From Methanoculleus bourgensis MS2 (GTDB taxonomy: Archaea; Halobacteriota; Methanomicrobia; Methanomicrobiales; Methanoculleaceae), in the NCBI RefSeq assembly GCF_000304355.2, contig NC_018227.2, positions 2,480,001 through 2,544,000 on the forward strand: a stretch of DNA of 64,000 bases. The letters run 5' to 3'. Under the pieces are notes generated by a model, which was not told the origin of the DNA, made no database searches, and saw nothing but the letters and a program-made list of their open reading frames with translations. Positions within the stretch are counted from its first letter, which is position 1, and each line of letters starts with the position of its first letter. A program made the translations under genes and the position numbers. Of the stretch, positions 28,026 to 54,202 are shown piece after piece.

Positions 28026-28511
28026 GTGCCGAATTCCCTTATCGTGACACCAAAGAGAACAGTCCTCCTCTGCATCCTGGTCTTTCTGCTCGCAGCCCCC
28101 GCAGCGGCCGGAAGCGTCGCAAGGACCATCACTCCCCAGGAGGGCGGTCTTGATATAACCCTCACGATGACCGGCATCCCGGTCGGGGGCATCGTCGAGA
28201 CACTCCCGGACGGCTGCACGTGGATGGAGACCGACCACCCGGTTGACCGCACCCGGGTCTCGGGCGGGAAGGTCGCCTTCGCCGTCATCGGTGAAGAGAC
28301 GATCAACTACCGGGCCCGGGGACCGCAGGACGCCGCGGAAGCCTTCACCGGCACCTGGGAAGACCTCCTGACCGGCGAGTCCGGCACCGTCGGGTCCGGC
28401 GGGGTCCGCGAGCCCGGGTCCGGCGTAACGCCAAAAGAGGCCCCCGGCTTCCTCCCCGCAGCCGCGCTCGCCGCGCTTGCCGTTGCATACCGCTGGAGGT
28501 GCGGCCGGTGA
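28026..28511 (+). CDS. Small secreted protein with PGF-CTERM-like sorting signal
   Basis: 161 residues. Signal segment VLLCILVFLLAAPAAAG (13-29), a ~90-residue beta domain (ITPQEGGLDITLTMTGIPVGG...ETLPDGCTWMETDHP), a Gly/Ser-rich linker and the tail PGFLPAAALAALAVAYRWRCGR. The tail has the PGF tripeptide, hydrophobic helix and basic end recognised by archaeosortase A. It is the first gene of the corrinoid/metal operon; the start is a GTG at 28026 (or 28044). It overlaps the binding-protein gene. Inference: an envelope-anchored accessory to uptake, perhaps tethering the unanchored binding protein encoded next. Confidence 0.65.
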   Translation: MPNSLIVTPKRTVLLCILVFLLAAPAAAGSVARTITPQEGGLDITLTMTGIPVGGIVETLPDGCTWMETDHPVDRTRVSGGKVAFAVIGEETINYRARGPQDAAEAFTGTWEDLLTGESGTVGSGGVREPGSGVTPKEAPGFLPAAALAALAVAYRWRCGR

Positions 28512-34500: not shown

Positions 34501-35266
34501 CAACGGCGTCAGCCTGGCGGTCTACGCATCGGCGTGGAAGGAGGAGGCTGACCTTGCGGAGGTCTTCCTCAGGTGGAACAGTTACGCCTACGGGAGAGAC
34601 AACTTCGGCGAGGAGTCGCGGGAGACCTTCTCCGCGCAGCTTGCGACCATCGACCTCACCTTCAACAAGACGGTGACCGATGAGTACGACCTCCTCGGGT
34701 GCTGCTGCTACTTCGGGGCGCACGGCGGGCTGACCGGGGCGGCAAGGGCGCTCTCGAACCGGGACGTGCCCGCCTACTACGGCGATACCCGCGACCGGGA
34801 CCGCGTGGAGGTCAGGACGCTCGCAGAGGAGATACAGCGGGTCGTCAGGGCGCGGCTCCTCAACCCGAAATGGATCGAGGGGATGAAGCGACACGGCTAC
34901 AAGGGTGCCGGGGATATATCCAGGCAGGTGGGAACCGTCTATGGGTGGGAGGCGACGACGGAGGAGGTGGATGACCGGATCTTCGACGACATCGCCCGCA
35001 CGTTCGTCCTGGACGCAGAGATGCGGCAGTTCTTCGAGGATGAGAACCCCTGGGCGCTTGAGGAGATCGGGAGGCGGTTGCTTGAGGCGCACGGTCGCGG
35101 CCTCTGGGATGCCGACCCTGATGTCCTCGATGGATTGCGGGCAGCCTACCTGGAGATGGAGGGCTGGATCGAGGACCGGATGGGCGATACCGGCGGCGAC
35201 GTCCAGGGCGGTGCGGTCCGTGTGGTTACCCTGAAGGACCTGGAAGCACTGCGGGAGGGAGAATGA
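31574..35266 (+). CDS. cobN: CobN/Mg-chelatase subunit H family protein (cobaltochelatase CobN)
   Basis: 1230 residues, full length for the family. CobN is the large tetrapyrrole-binding subunit that inserts a metal into a corrin or porphyrin with an ATP-driven ChlI/ChlD-type partner. Recognisable segments include VHVGTHGNLEFLPGKSVALS (~535-555), YWMASDVMWADGEQLAQ (~865) and FGSRPGTYGNGVSLAV (~965). It follows the uptake genes with a four-base overlap, and a ChlI/ChlD-like gene is 690 bases downstream. Methanogens insert cobalt early with CbiX-type enzymes, so the true substrate of archaeal CobN is unsettled: salvaged corrinoid, cobalt, or another tetrapyrrole. The C-terminal ~45 residues have a relic copy at 9137-9268. 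Confidence 0.9.
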   Translation: MKITIVAWGSELLQFSSAAREAGIDLSAWQVHELRDDPEKRRKCIESCRGSDVILVHPSNDPVWDDILGGLAEGIPVIAFGYTDAWWSASTVPLAVVSTVSAYFLYGGPENIRNLIRYVQAEVAGMDVAYDPPQETRWEGIYHPDAGCVFDDPDAYLAWYPSRHPVRVGLLFSRTHWANRDLAVEDALIRELEKYYDLLPVFCFGLPDEEIGARSDREVVETFFEGRISALIDARTFTPPRDADAFTKTLERLGVPVFHPLILYHQTETEWRSNIDGMRGSDVSWYVAMPEFLGGIEMVPIGAAENPDLTGTEGERHVPIDGRVEKFVARVRRWIDLAQKPAEERQVAFILHNKPCSSVEATVGAGAHLDTLESVARVLEAMHNRGYAVESPGSGRALIETIMNKKAVSDFRWTSVEEIVRRGGALALVEPEEYAAWFETLPPGARTRIIEAWGQPPGEEINGVPPAMVYEGKIVVTGVRYGNAIVCVQPKRGCAGPRCDGEVCRILHDPGVPPTHQYLATYRYIGETFGADVVIHVGTHGNLEFLPGKSVALSDACFPDIAIGTVPHLYIYNADNPPEGTLAKRRSYATLVDHMQAVMTSSDLYAGLKELEEQIADYNRAKGVDPARAHALEHTIADLLEETGIVDEIGFRGHHEHGSSFEEVIAAAHTAVTRIADTRIPDGMHIFGEIPEGERRAEFIHAIMRYDGEVRGAVLRMTGHDASTADDALLQDAEAAAKDLIAAALAGEPLDRAAERILSGSLRRLDLDALEGIRAGVLNLAARIDASDEMGSLLSGCAGGYIPPGPSGLITRGKPEVLPTGRNFYSLDPFRIPTRAAWRIGTRLAESIIQKYVEEQGRIPENIGMYWMASDVMWADGEQLAQVFSLIGVEPVWIDGKVRSFRVIPLEELGRPRIDVTVRMSGILRDCFYTCIELLDDAIREVAALDEPPDRNFIRKHALQGMGTARIFGSRPGTYGNGVSLAVYASAWKEEADLAEVFLRWNSYAYGRDNFGEESRETFSAQLATIDLTFNKTVTDEYDLLGCCCYFGAHGGLTGAARALSNRDVPAYYGDTRDRDRVEVRTLAEEIQRVVRARLLNPKWIEGMKRHGYKGAGDISRQVGTVYGWEATTEEVDDRIFDDIARTFVLDAEMRQFFEDENPWALEEIGRRLLEAHGRGLWDADPDVLDGLRAAYLEMEGWIEDRMGDTGGDVQGGAVRVVTLKDLEALREGE

Positions 35267-35310
35267 GCCGGGGCTGCAGGAGTTCATCCCGGCCGAGGGC
35301 CGGGCAGCGG

Positions 35311-35335
35311 GTTTTTAAATAATTTTTTAGCAATA
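35311..35335 (+). terminator. T-rich transcription end after cobN
   Basis: TTTTTAAATAATTTTTTAG, 45-65 bases past the cobN stop, is a plausible archaeal oligo-T terminator. The AT-rich stretch that follows could also serve as promoter for the small gene at 35528. Confidence 0.35.
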
Positions 35336-35527
35336 AATAATATTAGGTAATACTAATGGAAAGAAATATAACACTAAGAGTTCTATCCCTGCCCGGCGGG
35401 CGGGGCGGGACCGCCGGTGCCCAGGCCCGGGCCCCAGAAAGGCCATGGCCACCTCACCGGGCTTCCGGAGTCCATCGCCACCACCTGCCGAACCGCCCTG
35501 CCGGTGGCGGGGTGAACGGTGATTGAC

Positions 35528-35857
35528 ATGAAGAGAAGCATCGCTTATAATGAAGGCGAGATCGTGCTGGACACCGACCGTGACATCTGCATATACTACG
35601 CGCCGCGGGGCAGGCCCGGCGGGGCATATGCACGTGGAAAGGACCTCTACCTGCACGAAGAGGACGGGGTGCCCGATGTCTACTATATTCACACCTGGTC
35701 AATGGAGCCCAGCGAGGATGAACAGCTCCAGGCAGTCTCTATCGTCTCTGCCGAGGAGTTCCTGGAGATACGGGGGCTCATGCTCGCCGCATACCCGGAG
35801 AAGGCGGGGAGTCTGGCGCTACGGTCGTACGGCTACGGTACCGCTGAGGAGTTTTAA
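35528..35857 (+). CDS. Hypothetical small acidic protein
   Basis: 109 residues from the ATG at 35528 (a GTG nine bases earlier is possible). It has the character of a real protein, with alternating charged and aromatic positions: YNEGEIVLDTDRDICIYYAPRG, LYLHEEDGVPDVYYIHTWSME, then a helix EEFLEIRGLMLAAYP. Net acidic, no membrane segment, no cysteine cluster. It sits between cobN and the chelatase ATPase gene on the same strand, so a link to the chelatase system is possible but not shown. No family recognised. Confidence 0.5.
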   Translation: MKRSIAYNEGEIVLDTDRDICIYYAPRGRPGGAYARGKDLYLHEEDGVPDVYYIHTWSMEPSEDEQLQAVSIVSAEEFLEIRGLMLAAYPEKAGSLALRSYGYGTAEEF

Positions 35858-35953
35858 CCCACAGTCCCGGGCGGGGGCGGGGCCGCCCTCGTCCGGGTGA
35901 AATCTACTACCAAAAAGAAATTATTTAACACCCATTATGCCCTATTTTATAGT

Positions 35954-37975
35954 ATGTCATACCAGGCACGGAGGAACGTCCTCCCGTTCACCGCCATCGT
36001 CGGCCAGGAGACGATGAAACGCGCACTCATCCTCAATGCCATCAACCCGGGGATTGGCGGCGTACTCATCCGCGGCGAGAAGGGGACGGCCAAGTCCACC
36101 GCGGTCAGGGCGCTTGCCGACGTGCTCCCCGGGATCGATGTCATCCATGGTTGCCCTTATAGTTGCAATCCTGCCGGCGATGGCGGCCTGTGTACGGCCT
36201 GTGCTGAAAAGAGGGCTCGTGGCGAGAACCTGGAGGTGGAGCGGCGCCGGGTCCGCGTCGTCGACCTCCCGCTCGGGGTGACCGAGGACCGGGTGGTTGG
36301 CACCGTTGACGTGGAGCGGGCGATCCGTGAAGGAACGGTGACCATCGACCCGGGTATCCTCGCGGCGGTCAACCGCGGCATCCTCTACATCGACGAGGTC
36401 AACCTGCTGGACGACCACGTGGCCGACGTCCTCCTCGATGCTGCCGCCATGGGCGTCAACGTGGTGGAACGCGAAGGTATATCCTTCTCTCACCCCGCCA
36501 GGTTCATCCTGGTCGGCACCATGAACCCCGAGGAGGGGGAACTGCGGCCGCAACTCCTGGACCGGTTCGGGCTGCAGGTGACCGTGGAGGGGATCGTGAA
36601 CTCCGCCGAGCGTGTGGCGATCATCAGGGCCGCCGAGGCGTTCGAGTGCGATTCCGGGGAGTGCCGGGAGGCATACGCCGCGGCGCAGGAAGAACTGCGC
36701 GAAACGATCACCGCTGCCCGGGCGTTGCTGCCGTCGGTCACGGCTGATGACGCCCTCCTGAACGCGGTGGCGGAGGCGTGCATCAGGCTCGGGGTCAGGA
36801 CCCACCGCGCCGATATCGCCGTCGTCCGCACGGCAAAGACGATTGCCGCTCTCGAGAGGCGGACCGTCGTCACCCGCGACGATATCAGGGAGGCCATGGA
36901 ACTTGCGCTCCCGCACCGGATGCGCCGGAAGCCGTTTGAGGAGCCGAGGATCGACCCTGAAGATCTCGACGAGGCGCTGGAGAATGCAGGGAGCGGGCAC
37001 GACCATTCTCCCCGGGATGACGGGGACGATGCGCCCGATGACGGGCACCACGGCGGGGATGGTGGAGAGCTCCCTCCCTCCGGCGGGGACGCCGCACACG
37101 AGACCGTCCTCCCGGTCGGAGACCCAATTGATCCGAGAAAGATGAGCACGCCGGAACGGCGGGATACCCGGGAACGAAAGAGGGTTTCAGGCAGGCGGCT
37201 CGAGACCTTCTCGGCCGGGAACAGGGGCAGGTACGTCTCAGCCCGGTATCCGACCGGGACCGGCGACGTCGCGCTCGATGCCACGCTCAGGGCAGCCGCC
37301 CCGCACCAGGCGGTGCGCGACCACAACGGGATGGCGGTCGCCGTCTGGAGAGAGGACATCCGCGAGCGGGTCAGGGTGGGGAAGGTCTCTGTCGCGTGCG
37401 TCTTCGTGGTCGATGCCAGCGGTTCGATGGGAGCCACAAGGCGAATGGAGTCGGCCAAGGGCGCGGTCCTCTCGATGCTGCTGGACTCCTACCGGCACCG
37501 CGACCGTGTCGGGCTCGTGGCGTTTTGCGGGAGCAGCGCCGAGGTTCTCCTCCCGCTCTGTTCGAGCGTCGACCTCGCGCAGAAACAGCTGGAAGACCTC
37601 CCCACCGGTGGAAAGACGCCGCTAGGTGCCGGCCTGGTAAAAGGAATGGAGGTTCTCCAGCAGGAACGACGGAAGAACGGCGAGGTGATCCCGATGATGG
37701 TCGTCATCTCCGACGGCCGGGCAAACGTCCCCATCTCAGGCGACGTGCGTCACGAAGTCCTTGGCATCGCAGAGGAGATCCGGTCGCAGGGCATCAGGAC
37801 AGTGGTCATCGATACCGAGGAGACCATGGGCTCGTTCCTGGATCTCCGGCTCGGCTACTGCAGGGCAGTCGCGGAGCATGCCGGCGGCGGCTACTACCCG
37901 ATCGCAGACCTCTCCGCTGGTCTCCTGCGCGATATCACAACGGCCGAGCGGGACGCGATGATACGCCCCGTCTGA
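35954..37975 (+). CDS. Fused ChlI/ChlD-like magnesium (cobalto)chelatase ATPase with VWA domain
   Basis: About 673 residues from the ATG at 35954 (MSYQARRNVLPF). The first ~340 are a ChlI AAA+ module: Walker A RGEKGTAKST, Walker B ILYIDEVNLLDDHVADVLLD, sensor LVGTMNPEEGELRPQLLDRFGL. An insertion HGCPYSCNPAGDGGLCTAC holds four cysteines, probably for zinc or Fe-S. An acidic Asp/His/Gly-rich linker (~345-395) leads to a C-terminal VWA domain with a complete MIDAS motif DASGSMG and a later VVISDGRANVP. It is the motor that works with CobN. It has its own TATA-like AATTATTTAA (about 35917-35926), so expression could differ from cobN. Confidence 0.9.
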   Translation: MSYQARRNVLPFTAIVGQETMKRALILNAINPGIGGVLIRGEKGTAKSTAVRALADVLPGIDVIHGCPYSCNPAGDGGLCTACAEKRARGENLEVERRRVRVVDLPLGVTEDRVVGTVDVERAIREGTVTIDPGILAAVNRGILYIDEVNLLDDHVADVLLDAAAMGVNVVEREGISFSHPARFILVGTMNPEEGELRPQLLDRFGLQVTVEGIVNSAERVAIIRAAEAFECDSGECREAYAAAQEELRETITAARALLPSVTADDALLNAVAEACIRLGVRTHRADIAVVRTAKTIAALERRTVVTRDDIREAMELALPHRMRRKPFEEPRIDPEDLDEALENAGSGHDHSPRDDGDDAPDDGHHGGDGGELPPSGGDAAHETVLPVGDPIDPRKMSTPERRDTRERKRVSGRRLETFSAGNRGRYVSARYPTGTGDVALDATLRAAAPHQAVRDHNGMAVAVWREDIRERVRVGKVSVACVFVVDASGSMGATRRMESAKGAVLSMLLDSYRHRDRVGLVAFCGSSAEVLLPLCSSVDLAQKQLEDLPTGGKTPLGAGLVKGMEVLQQERRKNGEVIPMMVVISDGRANVPISGDVRHEVLGIAEEIRSQGIRTVVIDTEETMGSFLDLRLGYCRAVAEHAGGGYYPIADLSAGLLRDITTAERDAMIRPV

Positions 37976-40149: not shown

Positions 40150-41148
40150 TCATATCCACCTCTTCTTCCTGAAGTAGAGGAGCATCACGGCTGCGATGCC
40201 TATCATAAGGAGGAGGAGTGAAGTAAATCCAAAGGGCGAGTTCACAATCGGCATATTTGGGAAGTTCATCCCGTAGAACCCGGCGATGAAAGAGAGTGGG
40301 ATGAAGATGGTCGCGATGATGGTGAGAAACTTCGTGATCTCGGCGAGCCTATTGCTCTGATTCGAGGTGTGAAGGTCCATAACGCCGGCCAGAGTGTCCC
40401 GGGAGAACTCGGCGATCTCGGCTGCCTGGATGCACCGGTCGTATGCATCACGGAAGTAGGGGACCGTCTCCTTCCTGATGAGAGCCGACTCCCGGCTCGC
40501 AAGCGAGCCGAGAACCTCGCGTGCCGGCACGACTGCCCTGCGAATGGTCACAAGGTCCTCCTTGAGCGCGTAGATCCGCTTCAGGGCAAGCGGGTCTGCA
40601 AACGCCAGGACTTCGCCCTGGAGGTCTTCCACCCTGTCGTCGACCTGGTCGAGGATAGCGAGGTACACACTCACGATGGCGTCGAGGAGCGTGTAGACGA
40701 GGAAGTCAGGCCCTGCGCTCCGGAGGGCGCTCTGCTCGTTGTGGAGTTTCTCCCTGACCTTGTCGAAGATATGGAAGGGCTGCTCACGGAACGTTATGAC
40801 GTAGTTCTCCCCGAAGACCATGCTGACCTGCTCGCTTGCTATGCCACCGCCTTCGACCGAGAGCATCCTTACGATGACGGCGAGGTAACTCCCGAACTCC
40901 TCCATCTTCGGTCGCTGGTCCGGAACCGTGATGTCCTCCATCGTGAGCGGGTGGATGCCCGCCTGCCTGCCGAGCTCCACGAGTTCGTCATGCTCCGGAA
41001 CCCCGACAACGTCAATCCAGGTGACCGTCTGACGGCTGATCCATGACCAGGCCCTGGTGAGTTCGATGCATTCCCTCTCCTCAAGGTGGTCTTTGGTGTA
41101 GTCGATCACCCGGATCGAGAGTTTTTCACAGGATTTTTCCGGCTGCAT
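40150..41148 (-). CDS. corA: CorA-family divalent metal ion transporter (1)
   Basis: About 332 residues from an ATG at 41148; a TTG placed directly after the cooC stop (41166) would add six residues. The cytoplasmic funnel domain is long and helical; two C-terminal helices contain the selectivity motif YGMNF followed by the short loop PNMPIVNSPFGF, and the protein ends in basic LLYFRKKRWI. CorA proteins take up Mg, and some take Co or Ni. It is the last gene behind the acetyl-CoA synthase operon, with no gap after cooC, so it may be co-transcribed and help to supply Ni or Co; that part is inference. Confidence 0.9.
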   Translation of the reverse strand: MQPEKSCEKLSIRVIDYTKDHLEERECIELTRAWSWISRQTVTWIDVVGVPEHDELVELGRQAGIHPLTMEDITVPDQRPKMEEFGSYLAVIVRMLSVEGGGIASEQVSMVFGENYVITFREQPFHIFDKVREKLHNEQSALRSAGPDFLVYTLLDAIVSVYLAILDQVDDRVEDLQGEVLAFADPLALKRIYALKEDLVTIRRAVVPAREVLGSLASRESALIRKETVPYFRDAYDRCIQAAEIAEFSRDTLAGVMDLHTSNQSNRLAEITKFLTIIATIFIPLSFIAGFYGMNFPNMPIVNSPFGFTSLLLLMIGIAAVMLLYFRKKRWI

Positions 41149-41166
41149 TCCATCCCCCAGGCGCAA

Positions 41167-41922
41167 TCACCCCCTCCGCCGTGCACACTCCCCAACAAGC
41201 CATCCGGCGAGCGCCCTCACCGCCACCCGCGCCGGGCTATCCTCCGGGATCCCGACGATCGGCGTCCCCGCGAGATCGGCATCCCCTACGCCCGGGTCTT
41301 CCGGGATCCGGGCGATGAGGGGTATATCGCTACCAGTGCCGGCATCTTCCCGGTCCCGGTTGATGACGAGGTAAACCCGGTCCCGCGAGAGCCCGAGCGC
41401 CTCCGCGAGGTCCCGGATGCGGCTGGCGGTCCGCATCCCCCGGGCGCCCGGGTCGCTTGTGATCAGGAGGACATCCGGACTCCTGACGGTCCCCCGCGCG
41501 ATATGCTCCATCCCGGCCTCGGAGTCCACGATGACGAACCGATAGCCGCGCTCGAGCGTCTCGATGCACTCGGTGAGGAGGGCGTTTGGGAAACAGTAGC
41601 ATCCCGACCCCTCGGGGCGCCCCATGGCGAGAAGATCATAGCCCTCTGCCTCAACAAGCGCCCTGTGGAACCGGTACCTGACATAGCCCATCCGGTCCAT
41701 TCCGGGCGGGATGCTCCGGGTGAAGGCCTCCTCCCGCATGCTCCCGAGCGTCTCCGTGACCGCGACTCCCAGGGCCTCGTGGAGGTTCGTGTTCGGGTCG
41801 GCGTCCACGGCGAGGACCGGCCGCTCACCGGCCGCGACCAGCGCGTCGATTAAGAGCGCCGCGACCGTTGTCTTCCCGGTCCCGCCCTTCCCTGATATGA
41901 CGACGGTACAGGGCCGGATCAC
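41167..41922 (-). CDS. cooC: CooC/AcsF-type nickel-insertion ATPase
   Basis: 251 residues, MinD/SIMIBI class. The deviant Walker A SGKGGTGKTT spans residues 10-19 with the signature Lys, and the CooC-specific metal-binding CxC (Cys108-Tyr-Cys110 in GSGCYCFPN) is kept, as is the VDSEAGMEHIARG switch region. CooC dimers deliver nickel to the C-cluster of CO dehydrogenase or, as AcsF, to the A-cluster of acetyl-CoA synthase. Its place in an operon with acsB but without a CODH gene favours the AcsF role. It overlaps the methionine synthase gene upstream by four bases. Confidence 0.9.
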   Translation of the reverse strand: MIRPCTVVISGKGGTGKTTVAALLIDALVAAGERPVLAVDADPNTNLHEALGVAVTETLGSMREEAFTRSIPPGMDRMGYVRYRFHRALVEAEGYDLLAMGRPEGSGCYCFPNALLTECIETLERGYRFVIVDSEAGMEHIARGTVRSPDVLLITSDPGARGMRTASRIRDLAEALGLSRDRVYLVINRDREDAGTGSDIPLIARIPEDPGVGDADLAGTPIVGIPEDSPARVAVRALAGWLVGECARRRG

Positions 41923-42944
41923 GGCTCCTCACCCCGGAGACGACGCGAGAGCAACGCTGTCGCTTCCATGATCGCGGTGGCCTCCTGCTCGCCGGCGTTC
42001 CTGATCCCGCAGGTCGGCGTGATCAGGGACTGGCGGTCGAAGAGGTCGGGGTCGATGGTCTCTGTCGCCCGGGCGCGGATATCCCGGAACCGGGCAAAGA
42101 GCGAATCGGAAGTCTCGGCCGCAAAGACAGCGTAGTCAGCAGGGACAACCCCCCACGCCACCACGCCCCCGGTCTCCATGTAGCGAGCGACGTCGTCGGC
42201 GTAGAGCAGGAACTCCCGGGCGTAGGTCCAGGCGTCGATCGAGACCACGGCCGGTGCAAGCCTGAGGACGAATCCCCAGTCAGTGTTGGCGCAGCAGTGG
42301 ATTCCAAGCCCCCCCTCGAGGAGATCGGCGATATCCCCGAAGGCGGATGCCGCGACCCCGGGATCCACCGGGACGACCCCTGAACCGAGCGACGCAAGAT
42401 ACGGCTCACTGAGCACCACCAGGGTCGCGCGTGCGCCCATTCGCTCCCGCATCGCTTCCTCACACCACCGGGCCCGCAGCGCGAGAAGTTTCCCGAGCAG
42501 GTCGGCGTATTCGGGATCGTAGAGGATGGGCCGGCGTGTCTCGTCCACCACCTGCATCCCGAAGGTCACCGGGCCGGTCACCTGGCACTTGACGAGGAGG
42601 GGGCCCGAGAGGTCGCGCCCCATCATCGCGTGGAACCCCGACCCATAAGCCTCGCCAACCCGGTAGGGCTCAGCGTTCCCCTCGAGGTAGTCGAGCAGAA
42701 TCTGCTCCATCGCCTCCGAGGGGTCGGTGCCCCGGTCGACCGTGAGCCTGCCCTCCCGGACTACCCCGCCCGGGAGGTGCTCAGAATCGGCAAAGACGAT
42801 CGACTCAAGGAGGCCCCGGTTCGGCAGGGTGGGGATGAAGGGGATCTCCGGGAAGACCGTGAGCACCGCCCGGCACGCCGCATCCGGGTCGCGCTGGGGG
42901 AGCGCCCCCACACCGGTTGCGCGGAGTTCCGGGGACGGGATCAT
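41919..42944 (-). CDS. Core (folate-independent) methionine synthase-like protein
   Basis: 341 residues from the ATG at 42944 with a GGGGTGTGG ribosome site; the frame stays open 12 codons further. It is the catalytic barrel of cobalamin-independent methionine synthase without the N-terminal folate-binding half. Opening motif ATGVGALPQRDP; zinc ligands His216 and Cys218 (GIHCCANTDW) and Cys312 (TPTCGIRNAG) are in place. Core MetE proteins take methyl groups from methylcobalamin in vitro and from corrinoid proteins in cells. Sitting between the corrinoid-protein activator and cooC, it very likely draws the methyl group from the AcsCD corrinoid protein to make methionine from homocysteine. Family assignment is firm; the donor is inferred from context. 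Confidence 0.82.
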   Translation of the reverse strand: MIPSPELRATGVGALPQRDPDAACRAVLTVFPEIPFIPTLPNRGLLESIVFADSEHLPGGVVREGRLTVDRGTDPSEAMEQILLDYLEGNAEPYRVGEAYGSGFHAMMGRDLSGPLLVKCQVTGPVTFGMQVVDETRRPILYDPEYADLLGKLLALRARWCEEAMRERMGARATLVVLSEPYLASLGSGVVPVDPGVAASAFGDIADLLEGGLGIHCCANTDWGFVLRLAPAVVSIDAWTYAREFLLYADDVARYMETGGVVAWGVVPADYAVFAAETSDSLFARFRDIRARATETIDPDLFDRQSLITPTCGIRNAGEQEATAIMEATALLSRRLRGEEP

Positions 42945-42958
42945 GCCTGCCACACCCC

Positions 42959-44863
42959 TCACCCCTGCCTTGCCCGGCACGCCTCAAGCATCTGCTGCAC
43001 GTGCGGGAAGAGCGCGAGATCGGTGTGCGGCAGGAAGCAACTCGAGGTGTAGCGGTCCATGAAGGACGGCTCCGTGTTCAGCTCGATGTAGGTGATCCGG
43101 AGAGCAATCCCGTCGAGCGCCTTCCGCCGCTCCCGGTTGACCAGGGCGATGTTCGCGCCGGCGATCGCCCCGTTCCCGATGTTTTCGACCCGCTCCAGGG
43201 GCACCTCAGGTATCAGCCCGATGGTGATAGCGTTCTCTTTATTGAGGTAGTTCCCGAACGCCCCCGAGAAGTAGATCCTGCCGATATCGCGGGGCGTAAG
43301 ACCCGCCGCATCGAGGAGCGTCATGCAGGCCCCGTGGATAGCCGCCTTGCTCATGATCAGGTTCCTGATATCGTTCTCGGTGATGACGATATCCTTCCCT
43401 ATTGATGTCTCCTTCTTCCAGGCCACCACGAACTCAGGGTGGTACGGCCCCCTCCGGATCCGGGGATTGTCGATCTCCAGGTTGATCTGTCCTGTTCGGT
43501 CGATGACGCAGGCGCGGATCAGTTCTGCAATCAGGTCGATGAGGCCTGAGCCGCAGATTCCCCGCGGCCGGATGCCATTGATCGTCGAGTAGGACGGCGT
43601 GAGTGTGCCAGCGTCAACCCGGACCCGCTCGATCGCGCCAGGGTTTGCCCGCATACCAAAGAGCACCTCCCCGCCCTCGAGGGCCGGGCCGGCAGCGCCC
43701 GCGCAGGAGAGCATCCAGTCGCGGTTGCCAAGCACTGCCTCGAAGTTTGTGCCGATGTCAACCATGAGCGAGACCTCGTCGCGGTCTGCCATCCCCGACG
43801 CCAGGATATCGGCGATGATGTCGCCGCCGATGAAGTTCGAGACCGCCGGGAAGGTGTAGACCCCGGCGTTCCGGTGGGCCGCGATCCCGATCCGCCCGGC
43901 GGCCGTCGAGAGCATCCGCCGCACGACCGGGATGTAGGGCTCGGCGATCATGTAGGAGGGGTCGATCCCGAGGAGGAGGTGGGTCATCACCGTGTTTCCG
44001 GCGATCACCACCTCAAAGATCTCCTCAAGATCGATCCCCCCGGCATCGGAGGCAGATTTCAGGGATTCATTGATGCTCTCCGCCGCAAGTTGCTGCAGCC
44101 GGGAGAGACCGCTCTTCCGGGCGAAGTTCACCCGGGAGAGGATATCCTCGCCGCAGGAGATCTGGCGGTTGTAGTTGGACGCCGTAGCAAGGACCCGGCC
44201 GTCGGTGAGGCTCCTGATATAGGCCACGACCGTGGTGGTCCCGAGGTCCACGGCCGCCCCGTAGAGCCGGCCTGTGGTGTCGCCTTCGTCCACGTTGAGC
44301 AGGCGGTAGCCCCCGGGCACCAGGGCGACCGTGCCGGTCACGTGCCACCCGCTCCGGCGGAGCACCTGCGGGAGGTAGCGGAGGACCTCGAGCGGTGCGT
44401 AGATACGGTTGGGGGGCGGGCCTTCCTGACCTTCGATCCCCTCCAGCAGGCGGGCGAGGTCGGGTGTGGTGTCGTCGAGGGACGGGGGCGTGAGATGGAC
44501 CTCGTACTTCCAGACGGCGGGTTTTAACGGGACCTCCTTCATGCCCGGGATCTCCACGAGGATCTTCTGCTCCTGGATGAGCGACTCTGCCGGGACCTCC
44601 ACACGGACATCCCCGACGATGGTTGCCCGGCAGGCAAGGCATGCCCCGCTGGCGATCTCGTTATTTGAGAAGAACCTGCGGCAATCCTCAGTATCGAATG
44701 ATACTGTGCCGTCTTTGATGAAGACAAGGCACTTACCGCACTTTCCCTGCCCGCCGCAGACCACGTTCATAGGGAGGCCGGCTGCACGCGCCGCGTCAAG
44801 GATGGTCGTGCCGGAGGGCACGACCGCCTTCCGGTAGCCCGGGAGGAACGTCGCGGTCGGCAT
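42959..44863 (-). CDS. acsV: RACo: ASKHA-domain reductive activator of the corrinoid iron-sulfur protein
   Basis: 634 residues from the ATG at 44863 (TGATG overlap with the acsC stop). The N-terminal ~90 residues are a plant-type [2Fe-2S] ferredoxin with Cys36, Cys42, Cys45 and Cys78 (CGGQGKCGKC and CLAC). A middle domain is followed by an ASKHA ATPase region: GAAVDLGTTTVVAYI (phosphate 1), VIAGNTVMTHLLLG, LMVDIGTNFEAVLG, GICGSGLIDLI and FSGAFGNYLN. This is the layout of bacterial RACo, which uses ATP to reduce inactive Co(II) in the corrinoid protein back to Co(I). Archaeal methyltransferase activators (RamA) use a C-terminal ferredoxin instead, so the form here is bacterial. Confidence 0.88.
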   Translation of the reverse strand: MPTATFLPGYRKAVVPSGTTILDAARAAGLPMNVVCGGQGKCGKCLVFIKDGTVSFDTEDCRRFFSNNEIASGACLACRATIVGDVRVEVPAESLIQEQKILVEIPGMKEVPLKPAVWKYEVHLTPPSLDDTTPDLARLLEGIEGQEGPPPNRIYAPLEVLRYLPQVLRRSGWHVTGTVALVPGGYRLLNVDEGDTTGRLYGAAVDLGTTTVVAYIRSLTDGRVLATASNYNRQISCGEDILSRVNFARKSGLSRLQQLAAESINESLKSASDAGGIDLEEIFEVVIAGNTVMTHLLLGIDPSYMIAEPYIPVVRRMLSTAAGRIGIAAHRNAGVYTFPAVSNFIGGDIIADILASGMADRDEVSLMVDIGTNFEAVLGNRDWMLSCAGAAGPALEGGEVLFGMRANPGAIERVRVDAGTLTPSYSTINGIRPRGICGSGLIDLIAELIRACVIDRTGQINLEIDNPRIRRGPYHPEFVVAWKKETSIGKDIVITENDIRNLIMSKAAIHGACMTLLDAAGLTPRDIGRIYFSGAFGNYLNKENAITIGLIPEVPLERVENIGNGAIAGANIALVNRERRKALDGIALRITYIELNTEPSFMDRYTSSCFLPHTDLALFPHVQQMLEACRARQG

Positions 44864-46197
44864 CAGACCACCCACTCCTTCTCCAGGTACCCGGCGAGTT
44901 CGGCCGCATCCCGGGGGCCGACCATCACCTTCCAGCCGGTCGCATCCTCGATCTTCCCGGAGAGGGGAGCGGCGTAACCGGGGATGATGAGCAGCCTGTG
45001 GTCCACCAACTCGGGGGCGCGGAAGTTCCGGAGCGAGTCTGCGACGAGGGTCTCTGTCAGTTTTCCGCCGGCGACGGCCGTAAGGACCGAGAGGCCTTCG
45101 GTGTCCACAACGAAGAGGTAGGAGGGTATCCGGGACGCCTCGAGGTAGCCGAGCAGCGTGAAGTAGGTGAGCGAGAAGTTCACCGTGAGGAGGACCGGGG
45201 CGCCGCGCCCGGGCTCGTTGACCGGGTAGAGCCCGGGCGTTACCTGGATGGGTTTCTGCGGGTCGGTGTAGATGTTCTGCCGCAGGGTGAGCGCCGCTTC
45301 TACGGAGGCAGAAGGGAGCAGGGGGACGACGATGATCCCGGCGTACTTCAGGATCCCTGCCGCAAGGGCTGCATCGGTCTCCCCCAAGGGTGTTGTGTCA
45401 AGGAAGATGGGATAGCCGAGCGCGGGTTCGGTCCGTCCAATGGCGGCCCTCCGGATCTCAGTCGCGGCGGCGATATAGTCCCGGAGCGACCGCGGAGCGG
45501 GATCGAGCATGAGGTCTGAAACTCCGGCATCCGCGCACTCCCGGGCGATCACGGCGAGCCCTGCGGGGTCAGCAGCCCGCACCGCGAGGGGGCAGCCGTA
45601 CCGTTTCGCGAGCGCGACGATATCCTGCCGGTTTTCCTCGGTTGCGGCGTGGACCAGCGGCTGGTAGTGCCCGGTGACCGCGAGAGCAGCCTCATGGGAT
45701 ACGGGGTCGCTAGCGATCAGCACCAGGGGGAGGGCACTCCCGCCCCCGGCCAGCGCCACGGTCTCGGCGAACCGGTCGGGAGATCCGCTCTCGTCTCTGA
45801 CCGCAACCCCGGTCAGGACGAGGTCCATCCCCACCCGGTGGACGACCCTCTCCCGGACCGTCTCTACGATGGAGCGCACCCGCTCCTCCGGCCAGGTGTC
45901 TGAGACCTGCACCATAATCCCGGGCGGGTGGTAGAAGGTCTTCTCATGCCGGAAGAGGACGAACTCCTCCCCGACAGCAACCGACCGCTCGCCCACGCCG
46001 ACCTCGACAAGCCGGACAGGCGGCCGGGTCGCCCCGCCGAGCAGGGCTTTCGTCCCGGAATCGAGGTCAGGACAGGCCTCGACCTCCACCTTCCCGGTGG
46101 CGAGTTTCATCGCGAAGGCAAGGCAGGTGGGATGTCCGCACTTCTTGCAGTTCGTCTTCGGGAGGAGTTTGTAGATGTCAAGCGCCTTCATCGCCAT
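44863..46197 (-). CDS. acsC: Corrinoid iron-sulfur protein large (gamma) subunit
   Basis: 444 residues, the size of bacterial AcsC. The N-terminal [4Fe-4S] module has Cys17, Cys20, Cys25 and Cys42 (TNCKKCGHPTC...ACPDL). Then a TIM-barrel domain and a C-terminal corrinoid-binding domain (SLTYFTLLGYLEASRIPSYL, VDTEGLSVLTAVAGG). It carries the methyl group between the pterin-dependent methyltransferase and acetyl-CoA synthase. Three bases separate it from acsD upstream. The equivalent archaeal name is cdhE. Confidence 0.9.
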   Translation of the reverse strand: MAMKALDIYKLLPKTNCKKCGHPTCLAFAMKLATGKVEVEACPDLDSGTKALLGGATRPPVRLVEVGVGERSVAVGEEFVLFRHEKTFYHPPGIMVQVSDTWPEERVRSIVETVRERVVHRVGMDLVLTGVAVRDESGSPDRFAETVALAGGGSALPLVLIASDPVSHEAALAVTGHYQPLVHAATEENRQDIVALAKRYGCPLAVRAADPAGLAVIARECADAGVSDLMLDPAPRSLRDYIAAATEIRRAAIGRTEPALGYPIFLDTTPLGETDAALAAGILKYAGIIVVPLLPSASVEAALTLRQNIYTDPQKPIQVTPGLYPVNEPGRGAPVLLTVNFSLTYFTLLGYLEASRIPSYLFVVDTEGLSVLTAVAGGKLTETLVADSLRNFRAPELVDHRLLIIPGYAAPLSGKIEDATGWKVMVGPRDAAELAGYLEKEWVV

Positions 46198-46200
46198 GGT

Positions 46201-47112
46201 TCACACCTCCAGGGCCTCATGGAGTTTCTTCACGGACAGAGGATGGCGGACGCAGACAATCGATGCGCCGGCCACGAATGCGGAGTAGGCGGTGTAGAAC
46301 TCCCAGGCGACCGCCATCGCGTCCCGATCCGCCGGTGCGGCCTCCCGCACCTCACGGACCGAGAGGGTATCGGCGGGAGCGCTGATCATCGGCATCGCAA
46401 GGTCCGCATCCCCGGCGAGGCCAGCGAGACGTACCCGCTCCATCACCGAGTAGGAGTACTCAAACCCGTAGCCGAGCGCTCCCGTGTAGGGGTCGATCAC
46501 GATCCGGTCCCTTGGTATGCCGGTCTCGCGGAGGAGGATGTTCAACTGCTTCGCGAGGTTGATGTCGATGGGCGACTGGGCGATCACCGCATGACCGTAG
46601 GCCAGCGCCGCTGCGGCGACGCTCCGGTAGCGGTCGGCCTCCGCGGTCCCGAGGAGGAGCCGCTCACCCTCTCCCGCCTCCCCGCACCGCCTGAAGACCT
46701 CGCTGTCGAGTTCCGGCTCGCTGCTCCCCTCCACGATCAGGGGCCGGGTCGTCGCCGCAAGCACCTGGTCCATCGTCGCGGCAATCTCCCCGAACGCATC
46801 AAACCTCCGCTGCTTCGTGCTCGTGAAGTTCAGCCGCACGAGGTCGGCACCGTAGGTGCGCTCCGCAGCCCGTGCCCACTCGTCAGGGTTGTTTGCGAGG
46901 TCGCCCACATAGTCGCGGACCACGGGCGGCGAGAACCGGGGGTCGTCACAGACCTCAAGCGCCACGAGGAGCTGATCCGGCCTGTTCCCCAGGAACGGGA
47001 GATCCCGCTCACCTCCGATCACGTAGGAGACCTCCCGGGTTCCTCCTTCGGCCCGGGTGGCGCCGAGCCTGACTTCCAGAACCTCCGATCCCGGTTCACT
47101 GCTGTTGGTCAC
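46201..47112 (-). CDS. acsD: Corrinoid iron-sulfur protein small (delta) subunit
   Basis: 303 residues; archaeal CdhD is generally over 400, so this is bacterial AcsD size. Its N-terminus, VLEVRLGATRAEGGTREVSYVIGG, has the bacterial AcsD pattern. The barrel contains VRLNFTSTKQRRFDAFGE and DRIVIDPYTGALGYGFEYSY. It pairs with AcsC to form the corrinoid iron-sulfur protein. The start is a GTG at 47112, 14 bases after the acsB stop. Confidence 0.9.
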   Translation of the reverse strand: MTNSSEPGSEVLEVRLGATRAEGGTREVSYVIGGERDLPFLGNRPDQLLVALEVCDDPRFSPPVVRDYVGDLANNPDEWARAAERTYGADLVRLNFTSTKQRRFDAFGEIAATMDQVLAATTRPLIVEGSSEPELDSEVFRRCGEAGEGERLLLGTAEADRYRSVAAAALAYGHAVIAQSPIDINLAKQLNILLRETGIPRDRIVIDPYTGALGYGFEYSYSVMERVRLAGLAGDADLAMPMISAPADTLSVREVREAAPADRDAMAVAWEFYTAYSAFVAGASIVCVRHPLSVKKLHEALEV

Positions 47113-47126
47113 GCATCATCCCTCCC

Positions 47127-49148
47127 CTAGATCAGCGGCCTCATACCAAGCGCGGGGTGGCCGACACGCTCAAGGTACTCGATCAGGTCTTCGATCGTCA
47201 GTGCCGAGACCTCGTCTGCGATCTTCTCAAAGAGGTCAGGCATCCCCCGCTCAGCGAGTTTCGCCCGCAACCGGTCCCCAAGTTCCTCCTTTAAGGAGGA
47301 CGGCATCCAGACCACCCGCACGATGCCGTTCTCGGCCTGGAGGAACCGGTCGCTTAAGATGTAGTTCTTTGATATGCCGACAAACCCGGGCGTCTGCGCA
47401 CCACCCCCGATCGTCCCGGCGAGCGTTGAAAAAGTCATCCCGAGCGGCGTCTCTCCGGGGAAGTCGCGGCTGACGATCAGGATACCGTTCACCTCAGGGA
47501 CGACGGCCGCGATACACTCGAAACATCCGCAGGCCGTCATAGGGTTCTCAAGCATACTGTAGAGGGAGATCCGGTCGACCTCGCCGCGTGATGCCTTCTT
47601 CACGAACCGGTTCACCCCCAAAAACTCCCCGAGGTCCGCATCGACCACCTCCCCCTTCTCGACCGGCTGGTTCGCCCCGGCAGGTGAGATCTCGTGAGCG
47701 ATCCTGGCGTCGAGCCAGGTGATCGCCCCGCAAAGCGCCGGCCTCTCCGGCGTGATGACGCAGACGTGGTTTGGCGCGAACGTCTGACAGAGGGTGCAGG
47801 AGTAGAAGGTCTCCACGTCCTCGTCCCTCATCCCGGCGATCCGCTCGTCCCGCCGGGCGTAGATCTCCCGCGCCTCCGGAAGCATCTCCCGGACCTTCTT
47901 CCCGTCAGTGACCAGCGTCACCTGAACCGCGTCGACGTGCTCCGGGAACTCCAGCTTGAACTTGTGGGCAAGCAGCGTCCCGATATCCCGGATCCTGACG
48001 CCCTTTGCGACCGCATCCTTCGAGAACCTGACCCAGATGAGGTCTCGCTGGGCGACATGCCAGGACCCCTCGCCGTAGTTGATGAAGGTGTGAATCCGCC
48101 GCTCAAGCACCGGCTCATAATCTGCCTTCATCCTCGCGCCGGCGACGTCCACCAGGATCGCGAGCGGGAGGGCGGCGCCCTCCAGGACATCGTCCACCTC
48201 AGGCCCGACGACGGTGACCGAACCATCCTCAACCTCCTCCCGGGGCCGCATTCGGAGGAGTTCAAAGGCCGGGGTCCGGCCGCCGCCGAACTCCACGTAC
48301 ATCTCTTCCTTGCGGATGCTCTTCCCCTCAAATGCAGGCGAGCAGGCCATAGGTATCGGGATCGCCGTGACCGTGACCCGGATACCCCGGAGATCCATCC
48401 CGATCCGGACGGCGTCGGCGGGGGCGACTGGGACCCAGGCTCCCCCCTCGTAGGTGCCGCCGGCCGCGAGGATGGGTATCCCGAGCACCCGGAGAGCGTC
48501 GACGAACGCAATCTCTTCGTCAGTGAGGCCCGGGAACGCGACCACAAACGCCTTTGCCCGCTCCGCGGCGTACCCGAGCAGGGACTGGACGTCTCCAGGC
48601 TGCACCCCTCCAAACATCATGGCAACCCGGGCGATGATGTCGGCAAAGTGGATGCCGTGAGCGCTCTGCGGCCCGAGCGGCACCAGGCGGTAATCCAGCC
48701 CCAGGCGGACGCCGGCACCGGCGAGAGCCTCCACGACTCCTCCGGCAAGGAACGTGAGCAGGTACTTCTCCTGCATCTCCCGGCAGACGGCCGCCGCAGC
48801 ATCGGGGTTCTCCGGCGTCCCGACGAGGAGACCAAGGCCGGTGACGCTCCCGTCGACCAGGGTGTAGCCGAGCCTCCGGAGGACTGCGTCCGGGATGAAT
48901 CCGGTGTATGGGCTCGCGACACCGCCCCCGGCGGCCATCAGGCACTCGCAGGCGATGAGGAGGTTGTTGCCGGACTGCCTGTACGCCTCCCGCGCCCCGT
49001 CCGCGTCCCGCACGGCAATCCCGGTGACGGCGTAGGTCACGGGAAGAGCGTATGCCGTGTCCGCGTAGGCGAGCCGCCCGGCGAGCGCTCGCATTCTCGC
49101 GTCCAGTGCGGTGCGTCCGCGCTCTATCGCCGCATCAACAGTATCCAT
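47127..49148 (-). CDS. acsB: Acetyl-CoA synthase, full-length bacterial AcsB type
   Basis: 673 residues. It makes acetyl-CoA from CO, the methyl-corrinoid protein and CoA. Archaeal CdhC is only about 470 residues and lacks the N-terminal domain that channels CO from CODH; here that domain is present (residues ~1-240, DTAYALPVTYA, YTGFIPDAVLRR, MMFGGVQPG). A-cluster ligands are Cys451, Cys454, Cys463 and Cys473 for the [4Fe-4S] part and Cys540-Gly-Cys542 for the distal nickel. The intervals (+3, +12, +22, +89, +91) are identical to Moorella AcsB (Cys506 to Cys597). Also conserved: FEGKSIRKEEMYVEFGG and TFSTLAGTIGGGAQTPGF. First gene of the operon, with a TATA box ~35 bases upstream. No CODH subunit gene is nearby. 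Confidence 0.93.
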   Translation of the reverse strand: MDTVDAAIERGRTALDARMRALAGRLAYADTAYALPVTYAVTGIAVRDADGAREAYRQSGNNLLIACECLMAAGGGVASPYTGFIPDAVLRRLGYTLVDGSVTGLGLLVGTPENPDAAAAVCREMQEKYLLTFLAGGVVEALAGAGVRLGLDYRLVPLGPQSAHGIHFADIIARVAMMFGGVQPGDVQSLLGYAAERAKAFVVAFPGLTDEEIAFVDALRVLGIPILAAGGTYEGGAWVPVAPADAVRIGMDLRGIRVTVTAIPIPMACSPAFEGKSIRKEEMYVEFGGGRTPAFELLRMRPREEVEDGSVTVVGPEVDDVLEGAALPLAILVDVAGARMKADYEPVLERRIHTFINYGEGSWHVAQRDLIWVRFSKDAVAKGVRIRDIGTLLAHKFKLEFPEHVDAVQVTLVTDGKKVREMLPEAREIYARRDERIAGMRDEDVETFYSCTLCQTFAPNHVCVITPERPALCGAITWLDARIAHEISPAGANQPVEKGEVVDADLGEFLGVNRFVKKASRGEVDRISLYSMLENPMTACGCFECIAAVVPEVNGILIVSRDFPGETPLGMTFSTLAGTIGGGAQTPGFVGISKNYILSDRFLQAENGIVRVVWMPSSLKEELGDRLRAKLAERGMPDLFEKIADEVSALTIEDLIEYLERVGHPALGMRPLI

Positions 49149-49181: not shown

Positions 49182-49193
49182 GGAGTATAAAAT
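49182..49193 (-). promoter_or_regulatory. TATA box of the acs operon
   Basis: The minus strand reads ATATTTTATACT about 35-45 bases before the acsB ATG, the only strong box A here, giving a leader of roughly 10 bases. The divergent spacer to the PAS regulator (49149-49442) also contains GGTAA-AA-TTACC (49351-49362), a possible operator. Confidence 0.55.
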
Positions 49194-49442
49194 ATCACTG
49201 CCAGACGGGGTGGTATGCCGGGTTCAGGTTCAGACCCCGGCCATGAACGGCGCTTGCGTGGTGATGCCATCGCTCTCTTCGACCGCGCAGAGATCCGGCT
49301 GACAATCGTGTTCTCGGGCAGACAGCGCGGGCCCCCAGACTCCTCCGAAAGGTAAAATTACCGACCCTGCCTAATAACCAATAGAGATCTCCTGCCGGGC
49401 ACCGATCCAGGAGAACCCGGCGGATCCCAGAGGACAGCACTC

Positions 49443-53134: not shown

Positions 53135-54202
53135 TCATACCCACCCCTTTTTTCTAAAGTAAAGGAGCATTACGCCTGCGACGGCGATCATCGAGGCAAG
53201 TGCTGCCGGATACCCCCAGGGATGCCTGAGTTCAGGCATATGTGCAAAGTTCATGCCGTAGACCCCGGCGATGAACGTGAGCGGGATGAAGATGGTGGCG
53301 ATGATGGTGAGCACCTTCATGATCTCATTCATGCGGCTGCTCTGGCTCGAGAGGTAGACATCGAGGGTTCCGGACATCATCTCCCGGTAAGTCTCCACGG
53401 TCTCGGCGACCTCTATGGTGTGGTCGTAGGCGTCCCGGAGGTAGACGAGGGTTGAATCAAGGATCAGGGGCGACTCACCCCGCTCAAGTTCTGCCACCAC
53501 ATCGCGGAGCGGCCAGACAGCCCTTCGGAGCGCAATCAGGGACCGCTTCAGGGCGTAGATCCCCTGCAGGGTCTCGCGGTCGGGCTCTGTTACCACCTCC
53601 TCCTCGATCCCCTCGATACGCTCCCCGAACACCTCGATCACAGCGAAGTAGCCATCGATGATTGCATCCAGCAGGGCATAGAAGAGGTAATCCGCCCCCT
53701 CAGTCCTGATCCGCCCGACCCCTGCACGAAGACGCTCCCGGATACGCTCAAAGACGTCGCCCGGCTGCTCCTGGAACGATAGAACATACCCGCTGCCGAG
53801 CACCAGGCTCACCTGTTCACTTCGGAACCCGCCATCGCTCTCAGGGGAGAGCATCCGGATCGCCACGTAGAGATAATTACCGTAATCCTCGATCTTCGGG
53901 CGCTGATGGGTGTCCACGATATCTTCCCTGGTCAGCGGGTGGATCCCGACAGCGTCCCCAATCGCCTGGATCACACCGGTGTCGTAGACGCCGTCGACGT
54001 TGATCCAGGTGACCGTCGGGCGGAGAATAAGACTTTGGAAGTCCTCGGGCCGTGCCCTGATCTGCTCGTCAAGGCGGGACCCGTCGTAGTTGACGACTGT
54101 GACAGAGACCTGCCTTGCGGGGATATCGCCGGTGTAAACGAGCGCGCCGGGATCGGTATCCTGCCCATCCGTCACCTGGCTCTGGTCATCATGCCGGTTC
54201 AT
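53135..54202 (-). CDS. corA: CorA-family divalent metal ion transporter (2)
   Basis: 355 residues, paralogous to the gene at 40150. N-terminal cytoplasmic domain (TWINVDGVYDTGVIQAIGDAVGIHPLTREDI), long helix and two C-terminal membrane helices with YGMNF and loop AHMPELRHPWGY, ending LLYFRKKGWV. The alignment with the first CorA extends throughout, including HPLTxEDI and QRPKxExxG(S/N)YL. A solo gene with no metal-enzyme neighbours. Mg uptake is the default assignment. Confidence 0.92.
   Translation of the reverse strand: MNRHDDQSQVTDGQDTDPGALVYTGDIPARQVSVTVVNYDGSRLDEQIRARPEDFQSLILRPTVTWINVDGVYDTGVIQAIGDAVGIHPLTREDIVDTHQRPKIEDYGNYLYVAIRMLSPESDGGFRSEQVSLVLGSGYVLSFQEQPGDVFERIRERLRAGVGRIRTEGADYLFYALLDAIIDGYFAVIEVFGERIEGIEEEVVTEPDRETLQGIYALKRSLIALRRAVWPLRDVVAELERGESPLILDSTLVYLRDAYDHTIEVAETVETYREMMSGTLDVYLSSQSSRMNEIMKVLTIIATIFIPLTFIAGVYGMNFAHMPELRHPWGYPAALASMIAVAGVMLLYFRKKGWV

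What the first reader, a model, noticed from the sequence alone, without database searches (positions are those of the whole stretch)
41167..49148. Bacterial-type acetyl-CoA synthase operon in a methanogen
AcsB here is full length (673 residues, with the N-terminal CO-channel domain), AcsD and AcsC have bacterial lengths, and a bacterial-style RACo with an N-terminal ferredoxin is in the same operon. Methanogens normally carry cdhABCDE with a ~470-residue CdhC. All six A-cluster cysteines keep the exact spacing of Moorella AcsB. This points to wholesale transfer of a Wood-Ljungdahl carbonyl-branch operon from bacteria, working with methanopterin chemistry.
Basis: partly seen in the sequence, partly recalled or inferred. 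Interest (0 to 1): 0.82.

Follow-up and report, generated by a model that had tools for sequence, protein, structure and literature searches.

The report
CODH-less acetyl-CoA-splitting methyl-transfer operon

Summary
The operon is real, but it is not a carbonyl branch for CO2 fixation. It lies in a closed 2.79-Mb Methanomicrobiales genome (probably Methanoculleus bourgensis), so it is not a contaminant. On the minus strand it reads acsB-acsD-acsC-RACo-ORF353-acsF/cooC. AcsB, AcsC, AcsD and RACo each form one Methanomicrobiales clade outside the archaeal Cdh paralogues; the acquisition is old, its donor unresolved. No CODH gene lies in the operon. The genome's only 'CooS' has the Cys295-to-Glu change of CooS-V, a protein shown not to oxidise CO. 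A closed relative (G055) and several near-complete ones have the operon and no CODH. Other members of the order keep it beside a complete archaeal CODH/ACS. Four bacterial genomes share the gene order. The overlooked ORF353 is a MetE-fold, MesB-like core methionine synthase with an invariant His-Cys-Asp-Cys zinc site. Best reading: AcsB cleaves acetyl-CoA, the corrinoid protein AcsCD takes the methyl group, and ORF353 passes it to a thiol, as proposed for Dehalococcoides. MesA is nearly universal in the order and ORF353's homocysteine-contact residues are altered, so the acceptor is open. Price et al. (2021) already noted mesB beside acsC/acsD in some methanogens.

The parts
47127..49148 (-). 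AcsB, bacterial-type acetyl-CoA synthase/decarbonylase (A-cluster), 673 aa
   Evidence: NF040764 909 bits (cut-off 800), CdhC and ACS_CODH_B_C domains; A-cluster cysteine spacing as Moorella; tree outside archaeal CdhC; N-terminal domain shortened
46201..47112 (-). AcsD, small subunit of the corrinoid iron-sulfur protein, 303 aa
   Evidence: PF03599, NF003376 343 bits; tree
44863..46197 (-). AcsC, large corrinoid/Fe-S subunit of the corrinoid iron-sulfur protein, 444 aa
   Evidence: PF03599 + PF04060, NF003195 515 bits; tree
42959..44875 (-). RACo/AcsV, reductive activator of the corrinoid protein, N-terminal [2Fe-2S] domain
   Evidence: PF00111, PF17650, PF17651, PF14574
41919..42980 (-). ORF353, MesB-like core methionine-synthase-fold zinc methyltransferase; the start may be codon 13
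   Evidence: no Pfam/NCBIfam match below 1e-3; AlphaFold model (pLDDT 84) matches the MetE C-terminal domain at Z 22 and MesD 3rpd at Z 21.8; zinc ligands H228, C230, D249, C324 invariant in 37 of 37 homologues
41167..41922 (-). CooC/AcsF-family P-loop ATPase, nearer AcsF-position copies (nickel insertion into ACS)
   Evidence: CbiA/MinD family; in 21 of 21 bacterial loci with both kinds it scores higher to the copy beside raco/acsC/acsD than to the one beside cooS
49184..49200 (-). TATA-like stretch (ATTTTATA) upstream of acsB, a possible archaeal promoter; coordinates approximate
   Evidence: read from sequence only
40150..41166 (-). CorA-family Mg/Co transporter directly downstream on the same strand; possible metal supply, membership of the operon unproven
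   Evidence: TIGR00383 above cut-off; a CorA gene also lies near several relatives' operons

Best explanation
A CODH-independent acetyl-CoA decarbonylase and methyl-transfer module. Proposed steps: (1) AcsB, its Ni-Ni-[4Fe-4S] site loaded by the AcsF-like ATPase, cleaves acetyl-CoA (from the acetate the organism needs) into CoA, CO and a methyl group. (2) The methyl group goes to Co(I) of AcsCD; RACo rescues oxidised Co(II). (3) ORF353, a zinc thiol methyltransferase with the MetE catalytic fold, moves it from methyl-AcsCD to a thiol, most likely homocysteine, giving methionine. CO is released. Shown here: gene content, order, linkage, fold, zinc site, lack of a CODH partner. Inferred: reaction direction, methyl donor and thiol acceptor.
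For: Linkage: in 35 genomes of the genus, exactly the same 14 have long AcsB and ORF353; the gene order is fixed in nearly all Methanomicrobiales loci read, across five families. The same order occurs in four bacterial genomes (L193-L196); one of them, G232/CP070783 (a chromosome), has no PF03063 protein and no pterin-binding methyltransferase domain other than one in a 1143-aa MetH-length frame. No CODH: own CooS carries Glu for Cys295 and the extra Cys41, as in CooS-V, which neither oxidises CO nor reduces CO2 (PMC9311411). G071, G221 and G097 have no PF03063 protein at all; closed G055, and G081 and G133, only Hcp-length ones. CooS presence does not follow the operon in the genus (9 of 14 with the operon, 11 of 21 without). 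Closed genomes G157, G158, G192-G194 keep the operon beside a separate archaeal cdh set with its own CdhA. ORF353: MetE fold at Z 22 against 16.7 for the methyltransferase 4ay7, invariant His-Cys-Asp-Cys with the Asp typical of MesB (PMC7857596). Precedent: Dehalococcoides, with AcsB/AcsCD and core-MetE but no CODH, draws methionine's methyl from acetate (PMC7005905). M. bourgensis needs acetate but makes no methane from it (PMC5062929).
Against: MesA, another core methionine synthase, is found in 216 of 232 genomes of the order, so ORF353 is not needed as the only one. Most Methanomicrobiales ORF353 proteins have lost the equivalents of MetE Ser433 (all homologues: A 23, S 9, G 5) and Asp599 (N 23, D 8, S 6), which contact homocysteine in MetE. 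Some relatives (L057, L064, L068) have a true CooS a few kb downstream. No expression, labelling or enzyme data were available. Methanogens already have plentiful methyl-H4MPT, so the benefit of using acetyl-CoA is unclear.
Confidence: 0.55

Rival explanations
1. Same module, different acceptor: methyl from acetyl-CoA (or methyl-H4MPT) goes via AcsCD and ORF353 to coenzyme M or another thiol lacking amino and carboxyl groups.
For: The Ser433- and Asp599-equivalents are changed in most Methanomicrobiales copies while the zinc ligands are invariant; MesA already covers methionine. The bacterial, Thermoplasmata and actinobacterial homologues read keep Ser and Asp.
Against: Some Methanomicrobiales copies keep Ser and Asp (L054, L062, L069). 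Price et al. find the Glu484 region of MesB variable, so substrate contacts are hard to read (PMC7857596). The fold is nearer MetE than the M. mazei methyltransferase 4ay7.
Confidence: 0.2
2. Conventional acetyl-CoA synthesis: AcsB makes acetyl-CoA from a methyl group and CO supplied by a CODH elsewhere or by outside CO.
For: All AcsBCD parts are present and ACS chemistry is reversible; some relatives have a canonical CooS near or elsewhere.
Against: Own CooS is a CooS-V type; several near-complete or closed genomes with the operon lack any CODH; M. bourgensis needs acetate (PMC5062929); the operon sits beside a complete archaeal CODH/ACS in other species.
Confidence: 0.12
3. Remnant of a lost CODH/ACS, as the 'partial deletion' reading of Methanoculleus genomes implies (PMC8621161).
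For: Only some subunits are present and the genus shows patchy presence.
Against: The genes are bacterial-type, not leftovers of cdh. Six intact genes keep one order, and the zinc and A-cluster residues, across families and in bacteria.
Confidence: 0.04
4. CFeSP and ORF353 make methionine from methyl-H4MPT, with AcsB acting only as a side or buffering reaction.
For: No AcsE gene in the operon, and archaeal CdhDE is thought to accept methyl from methyl-pterin directly (own knowledge).
Against: AcsB is always in the operon in the loci read, and the AcsF-like ATPase points to maintained AcsB.
Confidence: 0.09

Closest known systems
Dehalococcoides mccartyi acetyl-CoA-cleaving methionine pathway (AcsB, AcsCD, core-MetE/MesB; PMC7005905, PMC7857596)
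   Same: AcsB and the corrinoid protein without CODH; a MetE-fold core methionine synthase; CO as by-product in the proposed scheme
   Different: Here six linked genes including RACo and an AcsF-like ATPase; D. mccartyi mesB lies in an operon with SAM-metabolism genes. Host is a methanogen that also has MesA. Homocysteine-contact residues changed in most Methanomicrobiales copies.
MesB with acsC/acsD operons in methanogens (Price et al. 2021, PMC7857596)
   Same: [quoted passage not shown] this operon is very likely among them
   Different: In the text read, the lack of a CODH, the bacterial-type AcsB, the CooS-V status, coexistence with archaeal CODH/ACS and the same six-gene order in bacteria are not described
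Bacterial CODH/ACS (Moorella, Carboxydothermus)
   Same: AcsB family and A-cluster, AcsC, AcsD, RACo, AcsF
   Different: No AcsA/CooS partner; gene order differs; N-terminal domain of AcsB shortened by 8 + 16 residues
Archaeal Cdh complex (CdhABCDE)
   Same: Homologous A-cluster and corrinoid subunits
   Different: Separate clades with 100% support; CdhC about 460-470 aa, CdhD and CdhE longer; the archaeal set occurs as a second locus in other members of the order

Membership tests
Bacterial-type acetyl-CoA synthase (AcsB) | Full-length alpha/beta ACS family match above cut-off | tested here: met
   NF040764 909 bits, cut-off 800
Bacterial-type acetyl-CoA synthase (AcsB) | Six A-cluster cysteines | tested here: met
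   Same spacing as Moorella; also shared by CdhC
Bacterial-type acetyl-CoA synthase (AcsB) | Branches outside archaeal CdhC | tested here: met
   100% SH-aLRT separation from five CdhC of the order; position at the base of the AcsB clan and donor unresolved
Bacterial-type acetyl-CoA synthase (AcsB) | Intact N-terminal domain that docks CODH | tested here: inconclusive
   PF18537 21.4 bits under cut-off 32.2; 8 + 16 aa missing in all Methanomicrobiales copies checked; effect on docking not tested
Bifunctional CODH/ACS (carbonyl branch) | A CODH partner with a complete C-cluster | tested here: not met
   PF03063 finds only an Hcp-length protein and one CooS with Glu at Cys295
MesB core methionine synthase | MetE catalytic-domain fold without the folate domain | tested here: met
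   Z 22 to MetE C-terminal half, Z 21.8 to MesD
MesB core methionine synthase | Zinc site His-Cys-Asp-Cys with MesB spacing | tested here: met
   H228 C230 D249 C324 (spacing 2, 19, 75; D. mccartyi 2, 19, 76 from PMC7857596); 37 of 37
MesB core methionine synthase | Homocysteine contacts Ser433 and Asp599 of MetE | tested here: not met
   Ala26 and Ser191 here; altered in most of the order, though Price et al. call them only 'mostly conserved' in MesB. ORF353 is therefore called MesB-like.
MesB core methionine synthase | Score above the published bit threshold to DET0516 | not testable with these tools
   No Dehalococcoides sequence could be fetched
Dehalococcoides-type acetyl-CoA-to-methionine pathway | AcsB and AcsCD without CODH | tested here: met
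Dehalococcoides-type acetyl-CoA-to-methionine pathway | No AcsE methyltransferase | tested here: inconclusive
   One 307-aa PF00809 protein, a kind found in every methanogen tested; not identified further
Dehalococcoides-type acetyl-CoA-to-methionine pathway | No other methionine synthase | tested here: not met
   MesA at G000:C1:1391712-1392611
Dehalococcoides-type acetyl-CoA-to-methionine pathway | Methionine methyl derived from acetate | not testable with these tools
   Needs labelling
CooS-V (for the genome's CooS at G000:C1:2382405-2384312) | Cys295 to Glu and Gly41 to Cys, other five C-cluster ligands kept | tested here: met
   Alignment with 7b7q and with AcsA/CooS sequences of other loci

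The most novel reading that the evidence does not exclude
In most Methanomicrobiales the module has been retuned so that ORF353 methylates a thiol other than homocysteine, for example coenzyme M. That would be an unrecognised link between acetyl-CoA cleavage and methyl-CoM in methanogens that are not acetoclastic and have no CODH.
Probability: 0.15. Interest if true: 0.85.

Novelty: new variant of a known kind. Interest (0 to 1): 0.58.

Why it matters
Acetyl-CoA synthase is usually thought of as inseparable from CO dehydrogenase, and Methanoculleus genomes have been described as having a partly deleted CODH/ACS. If this reading holds, a conserved stand-alone ACS module works in two domains of life without a dedicated CODH, and beside a complete CODH/ACS in some species. 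It would give a second, archaeal and cultivable setting for the Dehalococcoides-type acetyl-CoA-splitting route, and predicts CO release by acetate-requiring methanogens that are common in biogas reactors. It would also mean that acsB, acsC and acsD alone are not evidence of CO2 fixation in genome surveys, nor a cooS annotation evidence of a CODH.

Tried and rejected
Contaminant: rejected, closed single-contig genome with the gene family at one place.
Archaeal origin of the genes inside cdh: rejected by trees.
CooS elsewhere completing the pathway: rejected for this genome by the C-cluster ligands.
ORF353 as a uroporphyrinogen-decarboxylase/MtaA-type methyltransferase by fold: less likely, Z 16.7 against 22.
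Sole methionine synthase: rejected, MesA present.
Identification of a bacterial donor: failed; the AU test does not reject a joint clade with the bacteria that share the gene order (p 0.62), but this is not shown either, the stems are long (0.6-0.8) and Chloroflexota could not be sampled.
Recent transfer by composition: GC3 of the operon (0.83-0.85) is only slightly above its neighbours (0.79-0.82), so there is no sign of a recent one.
Sequence searches of ORF353 against solved structures gave nothing useful.
Full report
What is there. The window is bases 2,480,001-2,544,000 of a closed genome of 2,789,774 bases, 99.95% complete. The size and content fit Methanoculleus bourgensis; the species name is my inference, not a tool result. 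On the minus strand, six genes run acsB, acsD, acsC, raco, ORF353, cooC/acsF, with gaps of at most 14 bases or short overlaps. The families are clear for five of them.

What ORF353 is. An AlphaFold model from 12 homologues (mean pLDDT 84) matches the catalytic half of cobalamin-independent methionine synthase at Z 22 and the stand-alone core synthase MesD (3rpd) at Z 21.8; the next family, a Methanosarcina mazei methyltransferase, is at 16.7. The zinc ligands are His228, Cys230, Asp249 and Cys324, invariant in 37 of 37 homologues, with the spacing and the Asp that Price et al. (PMC7857596) give for MesB. [quoted passage not shown]

Linkage. Over 232 genomes of the order, ORF353 relatives were found in 112. 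In the genus (35 genomes) the 14 with ORF353 are exactly the 14 with the long AcsB. In nearly all loci read the gene order is the same, across five families. Four bacterial genomes have the same order (L193-L196). Within the phylum of the window, a profile search of 393 genomes found close relatives of ORF353 only in this order, plus more distant ones in four genomes of one other group, where no acs genes were seen on the short contigs.

No CODH. PF03063 finds two proteins in the genome: one of hybrid-cluster-protein length and one CooS of 636 aa about 140 kb away. The CooS has Glu where true CODHs have Cys295, and an extra Cys at position 41; its best solved relative is 7b7q. These are the two marks of the CooS-V subclade; [quoted passage not shown] Among relatives with the operon, G071, G221, G097, G069 and G076 have no PF03063 protein at all, and closed G055, and G081 and G133, only Hcp-length ones; closed G047 and G087 have an Hcp and a CooS 92% and 75% identical to this one. 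In the genus, CooS is found in 9 of 14 genomes with the operon and 11 of 21 without, so the two are unrelated. Many members of another family have the operon and, elsewhere, an archaeal cdh set with CdhA and a roughly 470-aa CdhC. A few have a true CooS a few kilobases downstream of the operon (L057, L064, L068). Of the bacteria with the same order, G232 (CP070783, a chromosome) has no PF03063 protein; G386, G411 and G296 have a CooS elsewhere. G232's only pterin-binding methyltransferase domain is in a 1143-aa frame of MetH length, so no AcsE is seen there.

Further pointers. The CooC-like ATPase is more like the copy that bacteria keep beside raco/acsC/acsD (AcsF position) than the copy beside cooS, in 21 of 21 loci with both. 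All Methanomicrobiales AcsB checked lack 8 and 16 residues in the N-terminal helical domain. From general knowledge that domain meets CODH in the Moorella complex; whether these gaps abolish docking was not tested.

Origin. In trees of AcsB, AcsC, AcsD and RACo the Methanomicrobiales copies form one clade with 99-100% support, clearly apart from the archaeal Cdh paralogues. Inside the clade the families mostly group, so the genes were acquired early in the order and then often lost. The donor is unresolved: the stem is long, and joining the clade with the bacteria that share the gene order is not rejected (p 0.62) but not shown. Other long archaeal AcsB, of Methanomassiliicoccales and others, are a separate group near Bacillota.

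Mechanism. In Dehalococcoides mccartyi, which has AcsB and AcsCD but no CODH, the methyl group of methionine comes from acetate, and a direct transfer from the corrinoid protein to homocysteine by core-MetE was proposed (PMC7005905; PMC7857596). The present operon has each part of that scheme in one unit, with activator and maturation ATPase. I therefore think the enzyme runs in the cleavage direction: acetyl-CoA to CoA, CO and methyl-AcsCD, then methyl to a thiol by ORF353. M. bourgensis needs acetate but makes no methane from it (PMC5062929). Cautions: MesA is present in 216 of 232 genomes, and the residues that in MetE hold the carboxyl and amino groups of homocysteine are Ala and Ser here and altered in most of the order, whereas the bacterial, Thermoplasmata and actinobacterial homologues read keep Ser and Asp. 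The acceptor could therefore be another thiol.

Relation to earlier readings. A survey of CODH/ACS-deficient methanogens (PMC8621161) treats Methanoculleus as having lost part of the CODH/ACS genes. The genes here are not remnants of cdh but a separate, conserved, bacterial-type set.

Noticed in passing
L203 (G307:C1:209497-210708), L204 (G421), L205 (G340), L206 (G414); also L207 (G271): Bacterial CdhC-like genes with exactly two in-frame TGA codons. In the four read in full (L203-L206) the TGAs fall at both distal-nickel cysteines of the A-cluster (TS-TGA-G-TGA-FE instead of TSCGCFE); the frame is otherwise open and the first four A-cluster cysteines are kept. A conserved stem-loop follows the second TGA (ATCCC-TCAGGTTGAT-GGGAT), like a bacterial SECIS. 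This predicts a Sec-Gly-Sec acetyl-CoA synthase; two recent selenoproteome reviews searched by keyword list only the gamma subunit/HgcA. selA/selB/selC not checked.
   Followed up: partly
G000:C1:2382405-2384312 (L003 1339-3249): The genome's CooS is a CooS-V type (Cys295 to Glu, Gly41 to Cys) and probably not a CO dehydrogenase; close relatives (70-96% identical) are found in several families of the order.
   Followed up: yes
window 28499-37975: Upstream on the + strand lies a corrinoid/metal cluster: BtuC-like transporter permease, CobN cobaltochelatase and a chelatase ATPase subunit; CorA Mg/Co transporters lie on both sides of the acs operon (40150-41166 and 53135-54202).
   Followed up: no
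L071, L072, L073 (archaeal-type cdh loci of the order): RACo with an N-terminal [2Fe-2S] domain sits beside archaeal-type cdhC/D/E in Methanomicrobiales, so a bacterial-style corrinoid activator may also serve Cdh there.
   Followed up: partly
L139, L142, L143, L145: Full-length AcsB in Thermoplasmatota/Methanomassiliicoccales and another archaeal MAG form a separate clade near Bacillota, apparently an independent archaeal acquisition; L145 also has a mesB-like gene and RACo nearby.
   Followed up: no
window 55181-56824: IS1634-family transposase.
   Followed up: no
window 14627-18409 and 18390-23618: Two adjacent very large (1260 and 1742 aa) putative surface proteins; the first has a PGF-pre-PGF domain.
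   Followed up: no
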